This document shows positions 4,834-59,892 of a stretch of 64,000 nt of DNA, piece after piece. Both the position numbers and the translations under genes were made by a program. The stretch is from a virus. The notes under the pieces were generated by a model. It saw nothing but the letters and a program-made list of their open reading frames with translations, was not told where the DNA came from and made no database searches. Where the stretch lies: positions 38,727 to 102,726 of the IMG/VR virus record IMGVR_UViG_3300033233_000017, one strand, 5' to 3'. Each line of letters starts with the position of its first letter. Position 1 is the first letter of the stretch.

Positions 4834-7800
4834 TTATTTGCGCGGAGGTTCAACTACTTTTTTGAACCGTACATCTGGCGCATTTCCTCCGCGAAGGATT
4901 TTGGCCCTTTCTCTTGAAAGACTTCGGCTAGGTGGTTGACCCGAGCCTGCTTTGCGAACTGCTCCTTCGCCTGCGCCTTGGCTCGGTTCACTGCCTCCTT
5001 CGGCCACGTTATGCTGTCTTGCGAGGATTCCGGATCGGACTCTTGGGCTGGCATACCTGTAGAAATCATAGACCCTCTCTCCGTGGTGTTCAAAGACTTT
5101 CTGCAACATATCGGACATCAGGGAAATGTCTTCCTCCAACGTCAACCCCAGACGGGCATAGCCACCAGACATCCCATCCGCCATCACTTCTCGGACCAGC
5201 GTGTCCGGGTCTTGCTCGTACTCGTAGCGTTCTACCAACCGCTGCGATGCGCGGCGGTAGAGCGGGTGGATTTCCATGGACTCGTAATTAAACATCTTCC
5301 CGATGGCCGCTTGATGGCGGTGCTGTATCTCATGCCGGAAAGCGCCCTTGACGCTTGCCAGCGTTTGCCCTTCCGTTGTGACCATGACAAACCCGTGCTC
5401 GTCGTTGGTATTGATGGCGTGGTCGATAGCATCGGCCAACCGGATGAGCGCGCTCCGGGACTCGCTGGTCATGTTCGGGTACGGATCTTCCCGCAGCAGA
5501 CCAGAGAGAGACGTGGCATCTTCGGCAGTGATGTGGACACCGCCAAAGCTCGGAACCGGTGTCTCATTGATGTGGGAGAACGCGGCGCGCAGCACCCGCA
5601 TGGCAGCGTCATTAATGAAGAGATGCGCAGGCTTCGCTCCTGCCCTATCGCGGTAGCGGAAGTCGGCTTTCCCAAAGATGTCCATGGGCTTGTCGGTCGG
5701 AAGGACCGGGTTGTCGTTAAGGCCGGACGGAGCGCGCAGCGCCTTCGGAGGCTCCGCGACGGCGGTATTGCCGGCCTTCTGGAACTGCGGTTGCCCCTCG
5801 TAGAGCACGGACTTGCGCATCTCAGGAGTGATGTCGAGGGAGTGGAGTTCGTGGTATCTTGCGGGAACTCCTTTCATCCCCACTACGTCTTCTCCAGGGA
5901 CGCGCACGGTCCCGACTTTCGCTCCCCACTTCTTAGCGTACTTGTTGGCGTAGGCGGGGAGGATCTTATCGTAGAAACTAGCCATCCCGGAGCCACCAAC
6001 CTTCAGGTCTAGGCCAGAGTATTCCAATGCTTCACCTGTTGGTTTTGTTTGCGCGTCAGTGACGATCTTTTCTGCCAAGTCCTTCGGTTCGAATGTGCCG
6101 GGAACGATGTCATAGTCGCCTGACCCCTTGGGAGTGTAGGAAAGCGTAAATTTTCCATCACTCTGCTTCCGCGCCAGTACGGAGTCAATCTGTTTCGACA
6201 AGTCGTATCGTTCTGCCTGCTCGTAGTGCCGCACCGCTTCCGCGTGCTGGTCCCATATCTGCTGCACCTCTGCTGCGGGTGCTCCGTTGCGCTGTCGCCA
6301 TTGGGCTTCGCGCTCCAACCTCCGCGCTTCTTCCGCCCACTCGGGTCCAGTCTTCCCGCCCGCTGGCGAGTGTGTGATCTCCTTGACTTCGACCGCGTTC
6401 TGCTTCAAGTAGTCGAGCACTTCGGCCTTGGAGACCTTCTGGCCTTTCTTGCTCTCCAGCCAGTCGTCCAGCCCGGTCCACTTCGCTTCATCGGCTTTTC
6501 CGAATTGACGCACGATGTTTGTGACCTGCTCCGCAGACGCAGCAGCAGGCATCTTCGCCTCCAGAGCTTTGGCGGTCGGAGAGAACCACATGGGCGCGAG
6601 TTGCGGCGGTTCTTCCACCGCTTCGGTAGTCTTCTGGAAACTTGGACCGCGAACGGGAGGCTTCGGTGTCTCTTGTATGCGCGCAGACGTGGGCGATTTC
6701 ATCACCTCGTTAGTTACGTCAACCGCGTACGGTCCTTCCGCATCATGCTCAATCCTGAGTACGCGAGCAATGTTGGATGCGGGGATGGGTGTTTTGGATG
6801 AAAACTCGCCAGCACCTTCATGCACCAACGAAGCGGTTTTTTTTACCTCAAGCAGATAACCGGGCTTAGCGATGTAACTGGTCGCGATGCTTGGCCTATC
6901 ACTAAAAAACGTAAGCCCCGCGTGCTGCGTCTTCTTTAGCCTCGCTGCTGTTTCACCACTGGATTCGATTTTCCCGGATGACAGGATCTTTTGAAGTTCC
7001 GCCTCTCCTTCAGATCCGCGATACACGTATCCGTCTTGTAGGCGAGAATGCCCATAGAACGCAATCTCCGCCGTGTTCGTGTCGGGCTCCTTGGCTGATG
7101 GGCGCGCATACGCCTTCCCGCCTAGCGGGATCTCGACCTTGTTGCCGTCCTTTCCCGAGAACTTAACCCGGTCGATGGTGACGTTCTTTCCGTCCAGCGC
7201 GGCGCTTCCGGCGTACTGCTCTCCGCGCCCCGGCTTCACGTAGGCCACGGTCACGTGCGGCTTGTAGGTGGGGTGCGTGTCGGTGACTTCGAGCGCTCCG
7301 GAGATCTTCTTGTTGAGACGGCGCAGGTCCGGCGAGTCCACGTCGATCTTCACCACGTCGGCGTCGTCGTTCTGGGACAGCGAGGTCTTCCCGAGTTTTA
7401 CCGTGACGGGTGGCTCGTTCGCGAGTAGCGCCCGCACTTTGGCCGGATCGCTCGTGTGCAATCCATACTTCACCGTAACGTGCGGCTCAGTCTCCCGACC
7501 ATTGGCTGCGAGGTCCCTTCCGGGAATCTTGGCTGCTTCCGCCTTGACCTTGGACGCAAGGGACGCGGGCAGGTTCACCTGCGTCGATGAGAACTCGTGC
7601 CGCCACGGCTCGCTCTCCATCTCTTTGGACGGTGGTTCGCCAGTCCGCTGGAAGCGCGGTGGCGTTCTGGTGCGACGGTGCCACATGCTCTGCGAATCCC
7701 GAAACTTGGTGCCAAGTTTGATCCCGGCGTCGGAGAGCATGTCACCGTACTTCTGCTGTTCCGACTGCGGGAAGCCTGCGATCACTTTGCCGTTCTTGGC

Positions 7801-10800
7801 GGTATGGATCGGCACCCCGGTGATCTCCGCCACTTTTTCAGCGTCGTTCCCGAAGAACTCGATGTAGTCTCCGTAGATGGAGCCGGTCAACGTCTGCTGC
7901 TTACGCCCGGTCGATTCGAACTTTCCGCCGCTCGCCTCCGATGCCAGATACTCCCTCAATGCGTCCTGCTCGTCCACGCCGTAATACGCGCCGACGTCCA
8001 TCTTTTTCGACTCGCCCTGTACGATGCTGGACAGGGTTTTCATCTTCTCGGAGAAGACTTTGGCATTCCATCGGTCGATGGGGGTGTCTGCAAACAGGTA
8101 AAAGACGCGGCCCTTGGACTCGGTAGTCATGCGCCAGATGCGGCCCAGTAATTGCACATTGGACATCGCATCGAACTCAGGCGTCATCACGACCACCGTG
8201 CGCGGGTGTTTCCCGGTAGTGTCGTCCAGATTGATACCGGTGCCACCCGATTTCGCGGTAGCGATCACGATGTCGGCTTCGTTGTCCTGGAAACGGCGCA
8301 TAGCCTCTGCGCCCTTCTCTTCCGCGCCTCCGTGGAGTTCCGCGATCCGGCTCGGGTCGATCCCGGCCTTGATGAGTTCCGCCTTGAGCGTCTTCGCGGT
8401 GCCTTCGGAGGAGTAGATCACTTCTTCCCACTCGTCCACGACCTCGCCATACTGGTTGCGGAGCTTGTGCTTGTTCTTAACGTCAGAGCGATTCACCCGG
8501 CTCGTGAAGATGATGACCTTGCGACCTTCGGCTAGTTCCTTCTGCGCCAGTTTGATGGTGCTCGCCACTTTGAACGGTTCCTGCTGGCGGCGCAGGTGCA
8601 TCAGGCGCACAGCCGGATTTGGCGTCATCATCGCTTTGTCGATGAAGTCCAGGTCCGCCTTGCCCTCTGCGGGGAGTACCATGTTCAGAGCGTGGATGTC
8701 GAGACCGTCAAGGGAAATCTCCTCTTTGCGCATCTTGCCCTGCTCGATCATGCGACCGAACAGCGCGGTGAAGTTCTTGCGGACTTGCGCCGGGGTGAAC
8801 CCTTTTCGAATCTCCCAACGGGTAAATGTCTGTCCCTTGGAGTTCTCGTGTTCCACCAACTCCATGCCCAGTTTGGCGATGGCGGCAGCTTCCGACTGGC
8901 CTTCCAGGATGCCGATGCGCTTCAGATAACCGATGTGATAGGGTTTGTCGGCAGGCGTGGCGGTGAGGAATAGGACGCCGTGGGCATCGTCGGCCAACCG
9001 GGTGATGATCCCAGAGCGGGCAGACGATCCGATGTTCTTGGCCGCGTGTGACTCTTCGCTAATAAACACCGTGTTCTTGTCCACGGGAGCGGTGCCGCAC
9101 TTCTCGTACGTGGAGATGTAGAACTTTCCCGGCTCAAACTTAGTGATGCCCTCGTGGTAGCGGATCGGGGCGATGCCGTACTCTTTGAGCCAGAATTCGT
9201 AGGAGCCCGTGGGCCAATCCGAGTTCGGTTTGGGGAACTTGAATACCTCTGCCGGACCGGCCAGAAAGACGGCTTTTCCTTGATCGAGGAAATACTTGGC
9301 GACGGCGGCGGAGGCCGGCGTCTTGCCGGAACCCGTGCCGCCCGCGTTCAACATCCCTCCGCCAGTCTCGATCTCCTTGGCGGCGGCGGCGGCGGCTTGT
9401 TCTTGATGCGGAGCCAGCGTTGCGGTCTTTGGCTTCGGAACGCTGGAAGCGCCCAGAGTCGGAGGGTTCCCGACCGTGATTATTTGCTTGGATATTTTTC
9501 CAGTTGGAAGTTCTTGTGAGCGTCCGGATGCTGCTTCATTATTTGCAGCATGTCCATCAGCGCCAGATCCTCCATGGAGGGGCCTTCCGAGTCCCAGATC
9601 TGCTCCGGCGTTGGGTTGCGGATGACCCGGACCTGCTCCTGTGGCTGGCTTGGCGGTTCCGAGCGTGGGCGGTGCGACCGGGGCGGATTGGGCATTTTCA
9701 GCATATTTGGCCTTCAGGTCTGGAAACGCTGCGAGGTGGCGCTGGAGGCGCTCATCCCCGAGCGAAACCTGCTTACTTTCGATGATACTCTCGATCTGTT
9801 GCTTGTACCATCCCTTAAAGAAGTCCTGAAACTCCTCGATGTCGGACTTCGACATCGAGGCAGGGAATTCAAACGGAGGCGGTTCACCCCCCCCGTTCTG
9901 CTGGAAGTTGCCTACTTTTTTTTTAGCCTTCGCCGCTTGGAACTGTTCCAGCGCCTTCGCCATGACTTCATCCGGGGTCATGTCGAGGATGGTCTTGGGG
10001 GCATCGTTGCCCGAGCGGGGAGCCTCTTTCTTAGGCGGTTCTGCGGGTTGGATCACCTCCTTCGAGGCTGGCCCGCTCGGGACTTTCTGGGACGCCTTCG
10101 GCGGCGCTGCTACCGCAGGCGCAAGGGCTTTGAGAATAGCTGAGACGTGGGCATCAGCGATGCGTTCCGCATTTTTCGCACCTTCTTCGGTGAATGACGC
10201 TACTCCCGCACGCTCCATCTCCGCTCGGACCAACTGGCGCTGGTCATAGCGCGGGTTGCCAAAATGCTTCGCGGTCTTCTCCGTGGGCCACTTATCTACG
10301 GGGATGGTGATAGTCGGATAGGTCTTTCCCGCTAACCTAAGACTTCCCGTGATGACACCATTCGCAACCTTGATTGTGACTGGGAAATCGCGAACAGACT
10401 TGTCTGTGACCTTAACTGGTACTGCCTTCGCAGGCTTGGGTGGTCCCGCTACCGATGGCTTGGCATTCTCAGGCGCGGGTGGCTCTTTCGAGTAGATCGG
10501 CTTTACCACCAACTCCCCGCTCAGTTCGGGACTCTTCGCCTCAATCGGATTGTCGATGGCGAATGCGGACGCTTCTGTTCTCGCTCGGAGAACCTCCGTT
10601 CCGCTCTGTTGGTTGCTCGCTTCAAACCGCACAACCCGGTCCATAGATGGGTGAATCAGTACCGCGCCGTTCTCCGTTTCGGCACGCAGCCATCCGGTTG
10701 GTTTGCCGTGAATATCCAGAGATGAGGTCGCGCGATCCCGAAGAATCTCGATGGGGTCAACATATCGACCCAGAACTTCCTTGGCAGTCCCGTCCTTCCG

Positions 10801-13800
10801 CCCTGATTTGACGCTGGGAGGCTCGATTGATTTCGGGGATGGATTCGGCGTCTCGGTTGGTGAGAGATCCAGCGCTTGCTGCGGTTGTTCGTCGATGGGC
10901 TTACCGGAGAAGAGGGCGCTGCCCTCCATGTCCGGAGCGGCCACTCCCTGCTTGGCGTTTAACTCTGCTTCGAGTTGGGCTTTTTGGATGGAGGCTGATC
11001 GGGACTCATTGGCGCGTGCGTTTTCTGTGGCGACAGCTTCGGGGTTCCTTCCGAAGAGATCTCCCACCCCGGAGCCAGTCCCAGTTTCACTGCTCGGACT
11101 ATCGACGCCAGCACTTGTTCCTTTTCCTCCGCTGAGAGTTTCTTGTAGGGCCTCTCGGACGCGCTCATAAGTCCGGGCGCGGACTTCGGCTGGTTTTCCG
11201 CCTTCGGCAAGTTCACGTGCTCCCTCCTGCAATGCTTCGTTGATGGGGCCGGCGCTGTAGGCTAGTCTACCGTATAGCTCCTGCGCTTGCCGCGCCGATT
11301 GCGCGACTTCGGCGTTCTTGTCGGTTTGGATGACGTTACCGGATTCGCTCAACCGCTTCGCAGACGCTTCCGAGGAGACCGCGCCGAACAGTTTCTTCTC
11401 CTGCAAGATGCGCTGCTTGACGTAATCTGATAATCCAGCCATCTCGGGAAGGAGATTCACCGTGGCCTCTTCCGTCCCGAACAAGGTCTCTTCCGACTTC
11501 GTTTTCTTGGGCGCACCTTTGGCGAGTTTGATCAGCTCGACCAATCCCCGATTGGTGACGTCGGGACGCTCGGACAGTAGCTTTACCAACGCTTCCTGCG
11601 CCGGATGGTTGTCTCCCAACATGTTCCCGATGATGACGCCGCGCGCCACTGTGATCTCTTCGTCCACGATCTGACGGAATATGGGGTCGGTCAACTTCGA
11701 GAGCGCCATGCCCTCGCCTGCTTTGGACTCGCGCAGGGTTAGACCGCGCTGCGCTAGGTCCGCTGGCGTCAGGTTCGAGTCGCGGAACAGTTTCGCGGCG
11801 TCTATGGCGCTTCCGCGCCCTTCTCCGATATTCATGAGCGCCCCGGCGACACGCGCCGCTTGCGGCGTCTTCGCGTCGTCGAGGTACTGCGCCCGCATGT
11901 TCTCTACTCCGAGGCGCTTGGCAAGTTGCAACCGATGATGCCCGTTTACCACGAAGGTCTTCTTCGCTACCGGGTCCCACCATAGCCAGATTGTGCCAGC
12001 TTGCTTGGGGTCCCAGACCGAGACGTCCCGCAGTAGGTCCGTGGTGCCGCCTTGCCCGATGGCGTCCATCTTGTACTGAAAGCGATTCGGATCGGCTTCG
12101 ATGTCCGCCGTGGGCACGATCACCGAGTCCTGATCGGATGGATATGCCGGACGTCCGTTCGGAAGCTTGGAAGTAGGCGTTGCGGTAGGCGCTACAACCG
12201 GCGCTACAACCGGCGCTACAACCGGGGCTACAACCGGGGCCGCTGGAGCGGGAGGAATAGTTTGGGCAACAGGAGCGGCGGCGGGGGGAACGCCGATGCC
12301 GCTGGAGGCGGGAGCGGCGATGCTAGTGCTGCCCAAGGCCGGGGGTTCGGAGGCTGCGCGGATCTGGAGTTCCCGTTGAGGTGGCTCGGCCCCCTGCGGG
12401 GACATCACCACGCGACGTTGATCTTGCCGCAGTTGTTCGAGTTGCAGATTAAGAGTATCCGGAGTCTCCGGAGTGGTGGAAAGCGCGGCGCTCTTGGGAG
12501 CAGCAGCGGGCGGTTCCGCAACCGGAATTCCCATGTCCGTCAGGACCGCCTTGTAAGCGCTCTGCGCTCCCAAGCTTTCCGCGCCGTGCAGGGCGACTTC
12601 GTAGCGATAGCGCAGGCCCAACGGTAGACCGTCGATAGTGGCCTGAATCTGCTGCTGGATCGCGTCGTGCTGTTGCCGCAGTTCTGGCAGGTTGGTCACG
12701 GCACCACGCCGCAATGTTCCTTCGCGGATCTGCTCAGACAGCGGTTGCGCCTGGGCTTCCAGCGCCGCGATCTTCGCCTGGACTTCCTGTACCTGCGGAT
12801 CAGCCTTGGCGTTTGGCGTAGCCTGCGGTTCCGGTTGCTTGCTCACCACCTCAAACGATTTCACTTCCGGCGCTCGTGGCGTGGAGATCGGCGGCATCGG
12901 GATCGCCGGTCGCGCTGCTTCCGCAGTGGCGGGAGCGGCAGGCGGCGGAGATACCACCTCGAATGGCTTTACCACGGGACGGTGAGCTACCAGGAGCGGA
13001 GTTCCTGCCGCTCCTGGTAGAAGCGGTGTCCCTGCGGGCGCGGACGGCATGGCGGGCTCCGGAGTCGCCGTCTGCGGCTCTCCTGCCGGTGGGAGCATGT
13101 TGAGGTTTTCCGGACGCCGCGCGGTGGGCCTTCCTATTCCCCGCGTGGGCACCCCTTCCATCACCACGCCAGCGGCAATCGAGGCTGGCAGTAGCAGGTT
13201 CAGCGCCGTCTCGATGTCTTTCTGGTACGACTCCAGTTCCTTTCCTTGGCCCTTCAGCGCCTTGGACTGCCGGCGCGCTTCGATCCCGCCTTCGAGTCCC
13301 ATGGCGGTGAAAGCCACCTGGGGACCGCGCCTCAGAGCTTCGTAGATGGCGTCCCGCACAATGGGGACACGGTTCAGGGTTGCAGCAACACGTGGAGCTT
13401 GTACCAGTTTCCCCAGTGCGCCAACTACGCCGGTCGCGGCAAGCATGGAGGCAAGGCCGTCCGCTGATACGAACCCGAGCGCCGTGCCGAGGAACGCGTT
13501 GCGCCACGCTTCCGGCTTCGTCTTGGGCGCGGGAAGGTATCCACCATAGCCACTCCACGCGCCTTCCATGACTTTCTGCGCTTCGGGAGATCCGAGGTCA
13601 GCCTTTCCCCACTCCGCGCCGGAGAGCGCCACACCTTTCTCGCGGGCGGGCATTTGCGCGAAACCTTCGACCGACTGCTGGATACGCTGCTGTACGCCAG
13701 GGTCGAGCATGGCGTCCTGCGGCGGCGCGGGCACCTTGGGCGGGTTCGCCGCGATCTGACGCGCGCCTTCCGAAATCTGCGTGTCCGCGTTGGCGTATGC

Positions 13801-14181
13801 CTGCGCCAAGGGGATCGGAGGTTGCGCGCCGGGAACTCCAGGAGCCTTCGGAACACCGAAACTACCGGAAGTGAGACGCCCGATCTCGTCGCTGGCCTGC
13901 TTCTTCGAGAGCTTCGGCGGCGCGGGTGGCGCGGGTGGCTCCATGCTCACCGCGACCGGAGCAGTTGGCGCGGGAGTATGCGCGCGTACGTTGAGTTCCT
14001 GCTGTGCTTCGGGAAACTTACTGAACCAGAGTTGCCGTTTGGCCTCTTGGGGAAGATCAATGGCGTCGAACGAGTCGATGAATTGTCGGCGGTCCTGCGC
14101 TCCGTAGAACGCTTTCCAGGCTTGGTCCTTGACCTCCATCGGAACCGCTGTACTGTCCAGGATCGACTTGATATCGGGCAT
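4834..14181 (-). CDS. Giant polyvalent virion/ejection protein (ParB-like, SF2 helicase, 2H phosphoesterase, ART-like, zincin)
   Basis: The 3,115-residue protein is a chain of domains joined by Pro/Ala/Gly linkers. In order: an N-terminal helical segment; a hydrophobic stretch near 225-262; a ParB/sulfiredoxin-like domain at about 686-800 with VVNGHHRLQLAKRLG; an SF2 helicase at about 1590-2050 with Walker A GGTGSGKT (1614), an EESH box, TATP (1740) and QLLGRIWR (2010); a 2H phosphoesterase with two PHVTV motifs (2232, 2308); an ADP-ribosyltransferase-like segment (VYRGS, GLTFFSD) near 2375; a polyvalent-protein-associated region with SGMASFYDKILPAYANKY near 2731; and a zincin with HEIQH at 2950. 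Polyvalent proteins are thought to be ejected with the phage DNA to protect it early. It is last in the late operon, beside the ejection proteins. Catalytic activity of each domain is inferred. Confidence 0.9.
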   Translation of the reverse strand: MPDIKSILDSTAVPMEVKDQAWKAFYGAQDRRQFIDSFDAIDLPQEAKRQLWFSKFPEAQQELNVRAHTPAPTAPVAVSMEPPAPPAPPKLSKKQASDEIGRLTSGSFGVPKAPGVPGAQPPIPLAQAYANADTQISEGARQIAANPPKVPAPPQDAMLDPGVQQRIQQSVEGFAQMPAREKGVALSGAEWGKADLGSPEAQKVMEGAWSGYGGYLPAPKTKPEAWRNAFLGTALGFVSADGLASMLAATGVVGALGKLVQAPRVAATLNRVPIVRDAIYEALRRGPQVAFTAMGLEGGIEARRQSKALKGQGKELESYQKDIETALNLLLPASIAAGVVMEGVPTRGIGRPTARRPENLNMLPPAGEPQTATPEPAMPSAPAGTPLLPGAAGTPLLVAHRPVVKPFEVVSPPPAAPATAEAARPAIPMPPISTPRAPEVKSFEVVSKQPEPQATPNAKADPQVQEVQAKIAALEAQAQPLSEQIREGTLRRGAVTNLPELRQQHDAIQQQIQATIDGLPLGLRYRYEVALHGAESLGAQSAYKAVLTDMGIPVAEPPAAAPKSAALSTTPETPDTLNLQLEQLRQDQRRVVMSPQGAEPPQRELQIRAASEPPALGSTSIAAPASSGIGVPPAAAPVAQTIPPAPAAPVVAPVVAPVVAPVVAPTATPTSKLPNGRPAYPSDQDSVIVPTADIEADPNRFQYKMDAIGQGGTTDLLRDVSVWDPKQAGTIWLWWDPVAKKTFVVNGHHRLQLAKRLGVENMRAQYLDDAKTPQAARVAGALMNIGEGRGSAIDAAKLFRDSNLTPADLAQRGLTLRESKAGEGMALSKLTDPIFRQIVDEEITVARGVIIGNMLGDNHPAQEALVKLLSERPDVTNRGLVELIKLAKGAPKKTKSEETLFGTEEATVNLLPEMAGLSDYVKQRILQEKKLFGAVSSEASAKRLSESGNVIQTDKNAEVAQSARQAQELYGRLAYSAGPINEALQEGARELAEGGKPAEVRARTYERVREALQETLSGGKGTSAGVDSPSSETGTGSGVGDLFGRNPEAVATENARANESRSASIQKAQLEAELNAKQGVAAPDMEGSALFSGKPIDEQPQQALDLSPTETPNPSPKSIEPPSVKSGRKDGTAKEVLGRYVDPIEILRDRATSSLDIHGKPTGWLRAETENGAVLIHPSMDRVVRFEASNQQSGTEVLRARTEASAFAIDNPIEAKSPELSGELVVKPIYSKEPPAPENAKPSVAGPPKPAKAVPVKVTDKSVRDFPVTIKVANGVITGSLRLAGKTYPTITIPVDKWPTEKTAKHFGNPRYDQRQLVRAEMERAGVASFTEEGAKNAERIADAHVSAILKALAPAVAAPPKASQKVPSGPASKEVIQPAEPPKKEAPRSGNDAPKTILDMTPDEVMAKALEQFQAAKAKKKVGNFQQNGGGEPPPFEFPASMSKSDIEEFQDFFKGWYKQQIESIIESKQVSLGDERLQRHLAAFPDLKAKYAENAQSAPVAPPTLGTAKPATGAGPGHPQPNAGADLGLGRPLHGGSGADGHAANNEAASGRSQELPTGKISKQIITVGNPPTLGASSVPKPKTATLAPHQEQAAAAAAKEIETGGGMLNAGGTGSGKTPASAAVAKYFLDQGKAVFLAGPAEVFKFPKPNSDWPTGSYEFWLKEYGIAPIRYHEGITKFEPGKFYISTYEKCGTAPVDKNTVFISEESHAAKNIGSSARSGIITRLADDAHGVLFLTATPADKPYHIGYLKRIGILEGQSEAAAIAKLGMELVEHENSKGQTFTRWEIRKGFTPAQVRKNFTALFGRMIEQGKMRKEEISLDGLDIHALNMVLPAEGKADLDFIDKAMMTPNPAVRLMHLRRQQEPFKVASTIKLAQKELAEGRKVIIFTSRVNRSDVKNKHKLRNQYGEVVDEWEEVIYSSEGTAKTLKAELIKAGIDPSRIAELHGGAEEKGAEAMRRFQDNEADIVIATAKSGGTGINLDDTTGKHPRTVVVMTPEFDAMSNVQLLGRIWRMTTESKGRVFYLFADTPIDRWNAKVFSEKMKTLSSIVQGESKKMDVGAYYGVDEQDALREYLASEASGGKFESTGRKQQTLTGSIYGDYIEFFGNDAEKVAEITGVPIHTAKNGKVIAGFPQSEQQKYGDMLSDAGIKLGTKFRDSQSMWHRRTRTPPRFQRTGEPPSKEMESEPWRHEFSSTQVNLPASLASKVKAEAAKIPGRDLAANGRETEPHVTVKYGLHTSDPAKVRALLANEPPVTVKLGKTSLSQNDDADVVKIDVDSPDLRRLNKKISGALEVTDTHPTYKPHVTVAYVKPGRGEQYAGSAALDGKNVTIDRVKFSGKDGNKVEIPLGGKAYARPSAKEPDTNTAEIAFYGHSRLQDGYVYRGSEGEAELQKILSSGKIESSGETAARLKKTQHAGLTFFSDRPSIATSYIAKPGYLLEVKKTASLVHEGAGEFSSKTPIPASNIARVLRIEHDAEGPYAVDVTNEVMKSPTSARIQETPKPPVRGPSFQKTTEAVEEPPQLAPMWFSPTAKALEAKMPAAASAEQVTNIVRQFGKADEAKWTGLDDWLESKKGQKVSKAEVLDYLKQNAVEVKEITHSPAGGKTGPEWAEEARRLEREAQWRQRNGAPAAEVQQIWDQHAEAVRHYEQAERYDLSKQIDSVLARKQSDGKFTLSYTPKGSGDYDIVPGTFEPKDLAEKIVTDAQTKPTGEALEYSGLDLKVGGSGMASFYDKILPAYANKYAKKWGAKVGTVRVPGEDVVGMKGVPARYHELHSLDITPEMRKSVLYEGQPQFQKAGNTAVAEPPKALRAPSGLNDNPVLPTDKPMDIFGKADFRYRDRAGAKPAHLFINDAAMRVLRAAFSHINETPVPSFGGVHITAEDATSLSGLLREDPYPNMTSESRSALIRLADAIDHAINTNDEHGFVMVTTEGQTLASVKGAFRHEIQHRHQAAIGKMFNYESMEIHPLYRRASQRLVERYEYEQDPDTLVREVMADGMSGGYARLGLTLEEDISLMSDMLQKVFEHHGERVYDFYRYASPRVRSGILARQHNVAEGGSEPSQGAGEGAVRKAGSGQPPSRSLSRERAKILRGGNAPDVRFKKVVEPPRK
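4854..5069 (-). CDS. Nested small ORF in +1 frame at 3' end of the polyvalent gene
   Basis: This 71-residue frame lies inside the last 236 bases of the giant gene, same strand, +1 frame. ATG 5069 follows a purine-rich GGAGAGAGGG at ribosome-binding distance. The product is helical and charged (EAVNRAKAQAKEQFAKQARV), unlike the Arg/Gly/Ser-rich tail that the giant frame encodes here. Translation is plausible but unproven; function unknown. A TTG at 5093 would lengthen it by 8 residues. Confidence 0.45.
   Translation of the reverse strand: MISTGMPAQESDPESSQDSITWPKEAVNRAKAQAKEQFAKQARVNHLAEVFQEKGPKSFAEEMRQMYGSKK
6675..6688. repeat. Dispersed palindrome copy, one mismatch
   Basis: GTATGCGCGCAGAC, one base off the consensus in the right arm, inside the polyvalent gene (read as TSARI). 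A right half-site (GCGCGCATAC) follows about 430 bases further on, near 7102-7111. Confidence 0.5.
9480..9704 (-). CDS. Nested small ORF in +1 frame within the polyvalent gene
   Basis: This 74-residue frame overlaps a Gly/Ala/Pro-rich linker of the giant protein just before the helicase. ATG 9704 is preceded by GAAGG at 6 bases. The product looks like an ordinary protein (NPTPEQIWDSEG, MEDLALMDMLQIMKQ). In the giant frame most codons here begin with G or C, as expected if that position serves as the GC-rich third position of the nested frame. That supports real coding in the +1 frame. Function unknown. Confidence 0.45.
   Translation of the reverse strand: MLKMPNPPRSHRPRSEPPSQPQEQVRVIRNPTPEQIWDSEGPSMEDLALMDMLQIMKQHPDAHKNFQLEKYPSK
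10959..11216 (-). CDS. Nested small ORF in +1 frame with strong Shine-Dalgarno
   Basis: This 85-residue frame starts at GTG 11216 after AGGAGGG with a 5-base spacer, the best ribosome-binding site inside the giant gene. The product has a convincing helical core (KKLSAEEKEQVLASIVRAVK) and GC-rich third codon positions; the overlapping giant frame reads a Ser/Gly/Thr-rich linker after the ParB-like region. The combination makes an independently translated nested gene likely. No family recognised. Confidence 0.5.
   Translation of the reverse strand: MNLPKAENQPKSAPGLMSASERPYKKLSAEEKEQVLASIVRAVKLGLAPGWEISSEGTPKLSPQKTHAPMSPDQPPSKKPNSKQS
12188..12235 (-). repeat. 12-bp tandem repeat (four units) in polyvalent linker
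   Basis: Four head-to-tail copies of GGCGCTACAACC (last unit GGGGCTACAACC) encode repeated Val-Val-Ala-Pro in the linker before the ParB-like domain. Probably slippage-prone linker DNA. Confidence 0.85.
13976..13989. repeat. Dispersed palindrome copy (GTATGCGCGCGTAC)
   Basis: Exact consensus copy near the 5' end of the polyvalent gene; read as VRAHT. Confidence 0.8.
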
Positions 14182-57921: not shown

Positions 57922-58101
57922 ATGGGAACATCCACCCGCCGCAAAGTCGGGCAACCGAAACTACCGGACCATTTGAGAAGGCAACTGCTTCTCTGCCGCG
58001 TTCTTCCAAGCACGCGACAATATCTGGAGAAGATGAAACAGGAGACCGGGATGGCGAATCTGGGTCGCGTGCTCGATCTCCTGATCTCCGGACAGAGTTA
58101 G
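57922..58101 (+). CDS. Ribbon-helix-helix-like regulator, 59 aa
   Basis: A 59-residue frame on the strand opposite its neighbours. It has a basic start (RRKVGQPKLPDHLRRQLLLC) and a C-terminal helix pair ending GRVLDLLISGQ, the layout of small MetJ/Arc-type repressors in phages (a beta strand with a turn, then two helices). It is divergent to the membrane gene at 57881 and its stop overlaps the stop of the 166-residue gene by four bases. No clear ribosome-binding site precedes ATG 57922, so initiation may be leaderless. A local repressor of the late block is inferred. Confidence 0.55.
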   Translation: MGTSTRRKVGQPKLPDHLRRQLLLCRVLPSTRQYLEKMKQETGMANLGRVLDLLISGQS

Positions 58102-58598
58102 ATCCCAACCGTCTTCGCCAGCGCCTCGATGATCGCTGCGTGCCGATTCGTGAACACGGCGGGCTGCGTCGGTTCGAGCATTTTGGCTACGTTGTTGTCG
58201 CGCACGTAGGGTCCATTATCCCCCGGCCTCTGCTTGGAAATGATCTCTTCCCACGGTTGCCGCGCCCGAATCGGCGTCGGGACTTCGGGCTTGCCTAAAC
58301 TCCCTACTCCAATCTCGTTGGCATACCCCATTGGAATGTTGTACGTCCGCGCCTCTTCCAGCCGGATCGTGAGCCGTTTTACCACGGCGTTTGGTCCAAC
58401 CACTGCGACTGCCTCGGGATAGACCATGTAGTCGTCTTCGGAGGTGGCCGACTCGTCGGCCCAGTACTTTGGTGCCCGCGTCGGGTCGAACGCCGGAGCG
58501 TCCTTACCGAAGGTCCGCTTGTACTCGTCGCGGCTGAATCTGTGAAACAGCCCGAGGATGAATACCGTTGCACACCCCGGAGGGTCCATTGCTGCCAT
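58098..58598 (-). CDS. Hypothetical protein, 166 aa
   Basis: ATG 58598 follows AAGGAGA; the longer frame to 58652 lacks support. The product has a short hydrophobic N-terminus (GCATVFILGLFHRF), a charged middle (RDEYKRTFGKDAPAFDPTRA) and a C-terminal helix (RHAAIIEALAKTVGI). No known motif. It converges with the ribbon-helix-helix-like gene over four bases. Likely an early or regulatory protein; no membrane span is certain. Confidence 0.55.
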   Translation of the reverse strand: MAAMDPPGCATVFILGLFHRFSRDEYKRTFGKDAPAFDPTRAPKYWADESATSEDDYMVYPEAVAVVGPNAVVKRLTIRLEEARTYNIPMGYANEIGVGSLGKPEVPTPIRARQPWEEIISKQRPGDNGPYVRDNNVAKMLEPTQPAVFTNRHAAIIEALAKTVGI

Positions 58599-58612
58599 GA
58601 TGTTAGTCTCCT

Positions 58613-58780
58613 TTACTCCGTCTCGTTGATGGCGATGCCGGCATTCGCCCACATCACCGCCTGTTGCAGATTGGTGTACGCGAGCGCCTTGGCATCGGCA
58701 CGAATCCGCTCATACCGCGCCGCTTGGTCGCCAAAGGGCTTGTGGTACGTGAAGATGTTCTCGATTTCCTTTGTGGTCAT
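58613..58780 (-). CDS. Acb2/Tad1 hairpin-like small protein (shortened), 55 aa
   Basis: The 55-residue product (IENIFTYHKPFGDQAARYER, then NLQQAVMWANAGIAINE) closely fits the Acb2/Tad1-type hairpin family (DUF7681 pattern) of phage proteins: an aromatic FTYH start, RYExIR, an AK-LA helix, and AVMWANA-IA at the end. Characterised members bind cyclic nucleotide signals of CBASS defence. The usual stretch between the two helices (about 15-20 residues with a PxSxE pattern) is missing here. It lies directly before the ParB-like gene in the map and downstream of it in transcription. Activity is inferred from family only; a function outside CBASS is possible. Confidence 0.6.
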   Translation of the reverse strand: MTTKEIENIFTYHKPFGDQAARYERIRADAKALAYTNLQQAVMWANAGIAINETE

Positions 58781-58783
58781 AGG

Positions 58784-59827
58784 TTACTCGTCCTTCCAGG
58801 GCGCGTCGTCGCTCTCTGCTTCGGAATTACGCGCCGATGCCGGGTCGATGAAGTTAAGCGCCTCCGTGGTGGCGCAGGTTAACCGTTCCACGGTATGCTG
58901 CACCACCGTCGTCGGCACATCCACGCTCCAGCCATCCTGGTCGTTGATCTTTACCCGAACCTTCATACCCGGCTTCAGCATCGCGCCACGCTTGAACGTA
59001 TGTGCGCATACGTGGAACGCTTCTTCGACCGAGACCCCCAACACCCGTACCCCGTTTGAGATGCGGGTGTGGAGAGTCAACGGTGGCGAGATTTGGGTGC
59101 CCTGTTCGAGTACCATGATTTCCGGTAGCGGCAACGGGACCGCTGGCGCGGGTTCCGGCACGGCGGCTTCGGCGTGGACTACCATGGTCTTCGACTTCGG
59201 CTCCGGACTGCGGAACCGCTCCCGTGTTTCGCGCTTTTTGCTGGCTGCCTCCCGCACCGCCTCCGGCCCCTCTTCCACCAGCCTGCGCTGTTCGGCTTTG
59301 GGTAGGTTGACGATCTCCGCAGCCGCCGTGACCGCAACGTCCCCAGAGGCCACGGCGTCGTTCAACTGCGCATCCCCGAATTCGACCACCTGCTGCGCCG
59401 CTTCGATCATGCGCGGCGAGACGTGCATGGTTTCCGCTACCTGCTCGGAGATCTTACCCTGCGGCACTTCTCCCGCCGCCTTGCGCCCGCGCTTGGTTTC
59501 AGCCTTGAGCAGTTTGGCGATCTTGGCCCCGATGTGGGCGCGTTGCGAATCGCTCAGGTGCCGCCGCGTCAGATTCAGGCTGACGACGAAATCGGTCAGC
59601 GATCCTTGCCCGTCCCAGGTCTGATAGGGCGGCTCGACATCCAGGGCTTTACAGGCGTTGTAGCGGTTGCGCCCGTCGATGACGGAGCCGTCTGGATGCA
59701 ACCAGAGCGGTTGGCGCACGCCGTTGCGGGCGATATCGGCCTGTAAATCGGCGGAGGCGCGGCGGTCCATCAAGGGGAAGAGGGCGCAAACGGAGTGAAA
59801 CGGTCGTTCTTGCATGTTGTTTGTCAT
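58784..59827 (-). CDS. ParB/KorB-like DNA-binding protein, 347 aa
   Basis: I start at ATG 59827; an ATG at 59860 is possible. Residues about 25-60 carry the ParB N-terminal pattern (RNGVRQPLWLHP, then GSVIDGRNRYNAC), followed by LNLTRRHLSDSQRAHIGAKI. An H-T-H-like region follows (SEQVAETMHVSPRMIEAAQQ), as in KorB and phage ParB proteins. The second half is Pro/Glu-rich and then a small beta domain. Such proteins bind palindromic DNA sites, or in some phages act as nucleases. A copy of the dispersed palindrome (58998) lies in this gene. It follows several small genes in a tight array. Confidence 0.8.
   Translation of the reverse strand: MTNNMQERPFHSVCALFPLMDRRASADLQADIARNGVRQPLWLHPDGSVIDGRNRYNACKALDVEPPYQTWDGQGSLTDFVVSLNLTRRHLSDSQRAHIGAKIAKLLKAETKRGRKAAGEVPQGKISEQVAETMHVSPRMIEAAQQVVEFGDAQLNDAVASGDVAVTAAAEIVNLPKAEQRRLVEEGPEAVREAASKKRETRERFRSPEPKSKTMVVHAEAAVPEPAPAVPLPLPEIMVLEQGTQISPPLTLHTRISNGVRVLGVSVEEAFHVCAHTFKRGAMLKPGMKVRVKINDQDGWSVDVPTTVVQHTVERLTCATTEALNFIDPASARNSEAESDDAPWKDE
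58998..59011. repeat. Dispersed palindrome copy (GTATGTGCGCATAC)
   Basis: Exact copy inside the ParB/KorB-like gene, read as VCAHT. Confidence 0.8.
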
Positions 59828-59892
59828 CTTAAGTTTGCACCCAATCACGCAAGTGGTCAACGTTAAAGAGCGCAGATCTGCGCTGATTCTTC

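What the first reader, a model, noticed from the sequence alone, without database searches (positions are those of the whole stretch)
58613..58780. Shortened Acb2/Tad1 hairpin-like protein next to the ParB-like gene
The 55-residue product keeps both conserved ends of this family (FTYH ... RYERIR and AVMWANAGIA) but lacks the usual middle of about 15-20 residues. Characterised Acb2-type proteins are sponges for cyclic nucleotide signals in CBASS defence. A minimal hairpin would show which part of the fold is needed. Its length is below common gene-calling limits, so it is easily missed.
Basis: partly seen in the sequence, partly recalled or inferred. Interest (0 to 1): 0.7.

Follow-up and report, generated by a model that had tools for sequence, protein, structure and literature searches.

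The report
Acb2-family gene with hairpin tip deleted
A phage gene of the Acb2/Tad1 family, whose known members soak up bacterial alarm molecules, has lost 16 codons from its middle, and the shortened protein is predicted to be one straight helix, so it is more likely a damaged or altered sponge than a working minimal one.

Summary
The minus-strand ORF 58780-58613 encodes 55 residues that match Pfam Acb2_Tad1_hairpin above its cut-off (E=1.3e-9) and PHROG 1454. It reads as a real gene: strong in-frame codon signal, and start and stop tightly coupled to the neighbouring genes. Relative to its closest homologue exactly 16 codons are missing. The piece removes the end of helix 1, the turn and the start of helix 2, including the conserved P-x-S-R-E-K-S-L-A motif.

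The spacing it breaks is nearly fixed: 43 residues in 77 of 77 scored homologues against 27 here. No second shortened form appeared in pattern scans of viral or genome contigs.

The 'minimal hairpin' reading is not supported. AlphaFold2 folds a full-length relative as a hairpin (pLDDT 91, pTM 0.78) but the short protein as one continuous helix (residues 19-54; pLDDT 78, pTM 0.48).

Best reading: a one-off in-frame deletion allele, probably formed between the K-x-L-A codons that recur 48 bp apart, whose sponge function is probably lost or weakened. A residual CDN-only sponge is not excluded: all highly conserved residues outside the gap remain, among them the equivalents of T4 Acb2 Y8 and T68.

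The parts
58613..58780 (-). 55-codon Acb2/Tad1 hairpin-family gene carrying an internal 16-codon deletion
   Evidence: ORF, Pfam PF24729 E=1.3e-9, PHROG 1454 E=3.4e-13; in-frame codon signal +0.52 bits/codon
58679..58780 (-). Retained N-terminal part (residues 1-34): short helix, FTYHKPFG loop and most of helix 1; holds Y12, equivalent of T4 Acb2 Y8
   Evidence: profile positions 1-34; for the profile mapping of T4 Vs.4
58613..58678 (-). Retained C-terminal part (residues 35-55 and stop): second half of helix 2, YTNLQQAVMWANAGIAINE; holds T36, equivalent of T4 Acb2 T68
   Evidence: the deletion junction lies at the KALA|YTN codons, its exact base ambiguous within the K-x-L-A repeat (searches place it differently)
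58784..59860 (-). Upstream ParB-like gene in the same direction (TTG start as listed; an in-frame ATG near 59825 is also possible), stop 3 bp before the acb2-like start
   Evidence: PHROG 4715 and 1033 ParB-like partition protein, E=1.8e-17 and 8.9e-7; distant ParB hits in phages
58098..58598 (-). Downstream gene of unknown family (166 aa); AAAGGAGA ribosome-binding-like site overlaps the stop region of the acb2-like gene
   Evidence: no family; upstream sequence GAGTAAAGGAGACTAACATC before ATG

Best explanation
The gene is an in-frame internal-deletion allele of a phage Acb2/Tad1 hairpin-family gene. An ancestor encoding about 71 residues carried, like its relatives, two similar K-x-L-A codon blocks exactly 48 bp apart, at the end of helix 1 and the start of helix 2. 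Slippage or recombination between them removed 48 bp and left one K-A-L-A. The product keeps the FTYH segment and the TNLQQAVMWANAGIAINE segment but has lost the turn that folds the two helices back on each other and the conserved S-R-E motif. Inferred: without the turn it forms one long helix, does not build the Acb2-type hexamer normally, and its sponge function is lost or strongly weakened. Shown here: family membership, exact deletion, breakage of a nearly fixed spacing, coding signal, absence of another short form in the scans, and the difference in predicted fold. Inferred: the slippage route and the loss of function.
For: Pfam, PHROG and profile matches in two pieces. Exact 16-residue gap to the closest homologue. 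Spacing 43 in 77/77, and 157 at 43 plus 6 at 44 in the wider set. AlphaFold2: continuous helix 19-54, pTM 0.48, against a hairpin, pTM 0.78, for full-length L002. The missing piece contains columns that are 42/45 to 45/45 conserved (P42, S44, R45, E46), a motif shared in part with Tad1. The longest in-register 48-bp repeats of relatives lie at residues 31-34 / 47-50 in 14 of the top 15 cases. Damaged natural Acb2 alleles are reported: truncated gp24 in PaMx41 (PMC10419184, PMC12043709), and T68M or complete loss in T4-like phages (PMC12657230).
Against: All residues that are 90% or more conserved outside the gap are intact, the frame is open, and codon usage and gene coupling look normal, so there is no sign of decay beyond the deletion. 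AlphaFold2 was run as a monomer on an 11-sequence alignment; Acb2 is a hexamer and the turn could re-form at A34-N37 on assembly. The repeat route rests on relatives, since no full-length near relative of this phage was found.
Confidence: 0.62

Rival explanations
1. A working, shortened sponge. The chain re-folds as a short hairpin with its turn at A34-Y35-T36-N37, or pairs as a swapped dimer of long helices, and still binds cyclic dinucleotides at the pocket made by the N- and C-terminal ends, having lost only what the hairpin tip provides.
For: Residues with measured effect in T4 Acb2 (Y8, T68; PMC12657230) map to retained Y12 and T36 (profile coordinates). [quoted passage not shown] All conserved columns outside the gap are kept. 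If helix pairs are 33-54, 30-58, 26-61 (inferred from the hydrophobic columns), the deletion is roughly symmetric about the turn.
Against: AlphaFold2 gives a straight helix. In a continuous helix the hydrophobic faces of the two kept halves lie about 115-160 degrees apart, which does not favour a simple swapped pair. No other phage with this form was found.
Confidence: 0.22
2. The short protein has a new role, for example as a helical partner of the neighbouring ParB-like protein or as a dominant-negative or regulatory peptide, and is no longer a sponge.
For: Tight coupling between ParB-like gene, this gene and the downstream gene; predicted long helix.
Against: No relative of the ParB-like or downstream protein was found in viral contigs by pattern, so no conserved neighbourhood supports it. 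The intact sponge-family residues need no new role to explain them.
Confidence: 0.06
3. Sequencing or assembly artefact: the real gene is full length and 48 bp were dropped.
For: Single metagenomic contig, no reads at hand, no second copy found; the gene occurs once in the 102.7-kb record.
Against: An exact 48-bp in-frame loss is not a usual assembly error, and repeats of under about 10 bp are too short to collapse in a standard assembly (general knowledge).
Confidence: 0.06

Closest known systems
PHROG 1454 / Pfam PF24729 proteins of phages (FTYH...PxSREKSLA...MWANAAIA, about 70-80 aa; e.g. Paenibacillus phage Bob BOB_74, IMG/VR L002)
   Same: Sequence outside the gap, 58% identity over 71 columns with the gap counted; conserved FTYH, RYxxIR, TNLQQAVMWANAxIAINE
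   Different: 16 residues with the turn and SRE motif are missing here; relatives keep a spacing of 43-44 residues
T4 Acb2 (Vs.4), a cyclic nucleotide sponge
   Same: Same Pfam domain (Vs.4 E=7e-20); Y8 and T68 equivalents present
   Different: Vs.4 is 88 aa with a longer middle; direct sequence similarity is limited to about 22 C-terminal columns
Tad1, C-terminal hairpin
   Same: Shares the S-R-E-x-x-x-A-x-T and MW motif with the full-length relatives
   Different: Tad1 has an additional N-terminal beta-sheet domain (PMC12043709) and keeps the SRE motif, which is deleted here
PaMx41 gp24, truncated Acb2
   Same: A natural shortened Acb2 allele in a phage
   Different: PaMx41 is truncated by a stop codon at position 37 (PMC10419184); here the frame is open and the middle is lost
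Acb2 homolog 43 (PDB 9ptq)
   Same: Closest solved structure by profile, E=2.4e-5 over profile 25-66
   Different: It has the full middle, including P-E-G-R-E-K-S

Membership tests
Acb2/Tad1 hairpin domain (Pfam PF24729) | Score above the curated gathering cut-off | tested here: met
   38.6 bits against 27, E=1.3e-9, but in two stretches
Acb2/Tad1 hairpin domain (Pfam PF24729) | Two antiparallel helices joined by a turn | tested here: not met
   Turn deleted; AlphaFold2 monomer predicts one helix 19-54, control gives a hairpin. Low-depth monomer prediction, so not final
Acb2/Tad1 hairpin domain (Pfam PF24729) | Conserved P-x-S-R-E-x-S-x-A at the start of helix 2 | tested here: not met
   Absent by deletion
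Acb2 sponge | Homohexamer | not testable with these tools
   No multimer prediction available
Acb2 sponge | Binds cyclic dinucleotides and trinucleotides without degrading them | not testable with these tools
   Needs ITC, native gel shift and HPLC
Acb2 sponge | Residues equivalent to T4 Y8 and T68 | tested here: met
   Y12 and T36 by Pfam profile coordinates; functional effect in T4 from PMC12657230
Tad1 | N-terminal beta-sheet domain before the hairpin | tested here: not met
   55-aa protein with only 18 residues before helix 1

The most novel reading that the evidence does not exclude
The smallest functional Acb2-type sponge: a 55-residue protein that still assembles and binds cyclic dinucleotides through its two ends while having dropped the hairpin tip and any function it carries, showing that the tip is dispensable for part of the activity.
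Probability: 0.15. Interest if true: 0.6.

Novelty: new variant of a known kind. Interest (0 to 1): 0.3.

Why it matters
If functional, it would map the minimal sponge and separate the ends of the fold from its tip. If not functional, it is a further natural inactivation of an Acb2-family gene, beside the PaMx41 truncation and the T4-like losses, in line with the idea that phages sometimes gain by losing their sponge (for example against Panoptes, which is triggered by Acb proteins; PMC12657230). That selective link is not shown for this phage. The near-invariant spacing in the relatives is itself a useful constraint on the family.

Tried and rejected
Other shortened members: pattern scans of viral contigs at short spacing, intermediate spacing and of genome contigs gave only chance hits without an open frame or the family sequence; the strict pattern recovers 38 of 80 full-length loci, so it would miss about half. 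Smeadley gp56 (61 aa) and Eponine gp5 looked short in tblastn but keep the tip; gp56 lacks the FTYH segment, gp5 is a full-length member of 120 aa. Relatives of the ParB-like and downstream genes as phage anchors: none in viral contigs by pattern. Solved structures: the short protein has no sequence or Foldseek match; the full-length model has no significant PDB Foldseek match, while its best matches in the viral library are named Acb2/Tad1 hairpin proteins (best E=1.7e-3). Swapped-dimer idea: the helical-phase estimate is unfavourable, not decisive. Defence models: none for this protein. Literature on the residues for trinucleotide binding was not found in the library, so no claim is made about which pocket the SRE motif serves.

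Full report
What is there. The minus-strand ORF 58780..58613 encodes MTTKEIENIFTYHKPFGDQAARYERIRADAKALAYTNLQQAVMWANAGIAINETE. It matches Pfam Acb2_Tad1_hairpin (PF24729) at E=1.3e-9, 38.6 bits against a cut-off of 27, in two stretches, and PHROG 1454 at 3.4e-13. tblastn finds relatives in 165 phage records at a loose limit, best E about 1e-8. The window lies in a 102,726-bp virus record with a major head protein, portal, terminase large subunit and tail-type proteins. It is the only family member in that record.

It is a real gene. Codon usage learned from the large genes of the window scores +0.52 bits per codon in this frame and below zero in the other five. Its start codon follows the stop of the upstream ParB-like gene (PHROG ParB-like partition protein, E=1.8e-17) by three bases, with GGAAGGACGAG upstream. 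Its stop codon overlaps AAAGGAGA, the likely ribosome-binding site of the next gene (sequence).

What is missing. The closest relatives in viral contigs are full length. L002 aligns over its entire 71 residues with a single 16-residue gap. A profile of the relatives matches the short protein as positions 1-34 and 47-71 only. In the AlphaFold2 model of L002 the helices are 20-40 and 45-67, so the deletion (about 35-50) takes the end of helix 1, the turn and the start of helix 2. Of 46 aligned sequences, 45 hold letters at P42 and all 45 have P; S44, R45 and E46 are kept in 43, 43 and 42 of 45. These columns are gone here.

How unusual is it? Between the Pro of F-x-Y-H-x-P and MWAN, 77 of 77 scored homologues have 43 residues. 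That scan was not selected for spacing, but its loci are ranked by similarity to a full-length query, which favours full-length members. The combined set is 157 at 43, 6 at 44 and one, the window, at 27; part of it was fetched with a normal-spacing pattern. A relaxed version and an intermediate spacing also gave only chance hits, as did genome contigs. The strict pattern recovers 38 of 80 known loci, so the absence is meaningful but not complete, and records very near the window may be left out of these collections.

How it probably arose (inference). The family consensus has K-E-L-A at 31-34 and K-S-L-A at 47-50, exactly 16 codons apart; the window has a single K-A-L-A at the junction. In relatives the longest in-register matches at an offset of 48 bp fall at these codons in 14 of the top 15 cases, up to 9 bp in a GC-rich member. 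The excess of such matches at 48 over other offsets is small, so this supports a location, not a hot spot. Slippage or recombination between these blocks is the simplest route.

What it probably does. AlphaFold2, same method and same alignment depth, folds L002 as a hairpin (pLDDT 91.4, pTM 0.78) and the window protein as H3-9 plus one helix 19-54 (pLDDT 78.5, pTM 0.48). [quoted passage not shown] Losing the turn should disturb that assembly. On the other side, every column with 90% or more conservation outside the gap is kept, and the equivalents of T4 Acb2 Y8 (Y8A inactive) and T68 (T68M lowers affinity; PMC12657230) are present as Y12 and T36 by Pfam coordinates. A residual dinucleotide sponge is thus possible. 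The intact flanks may also only mean that the deletion is recent; with one sequence the two cannot be told apart.

Limits. The sponge function of this FTYH subfamily rests on family membership: Pfam and UniProt names, and profile similarity to Acb2 homolog 43 (PDB 9ptq, E=2.4e-5) and to Tad1 (E about 0.006). I found no binding data for PHROG 1454 members in the library searched. The hexamer could not be modelled, the reads could not be seen, and no near relative of the phage was found.

Verdict. The reading as a minimal hairpin is weak. The best account is a one-off in-frame deletion allele with probably reduced or lost function.

Noticed in passing
   Followed up: partly
L119, L128, L188, L193, L208, L219: Six relatives carry one extra residue between FTYHxP and MWAN (spacing 44), apparently near the loop before helix 1; possibly a distinct subgroup.
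   Followed up: no
NC_028860 34481-34666 (L016 1444-1629): Smeadley gp56, 61 aa, keeps the hairpin tip but lacks the FTYH N-terminal segment: the opposite kind of shortening.
   Followed up: partly
Paenibacillus phages such as KT361654, MH460826, KT361655: Members of this family are annotated as 'phosphomannomutase' in many Paenibacillus phage records, most likely a propagated misannotation.
   Followed up: no
window 58542-59624 (+): A 360-codon open frame antisense to the ParB-like and acb2-like genes; most likely a by-product of GC-rich codon usage.
   Followed up: no
window 4834-14181 (-): A 3115-aa open frame in a phage with few recognisable neighbours; not examined.
   Followed up: no
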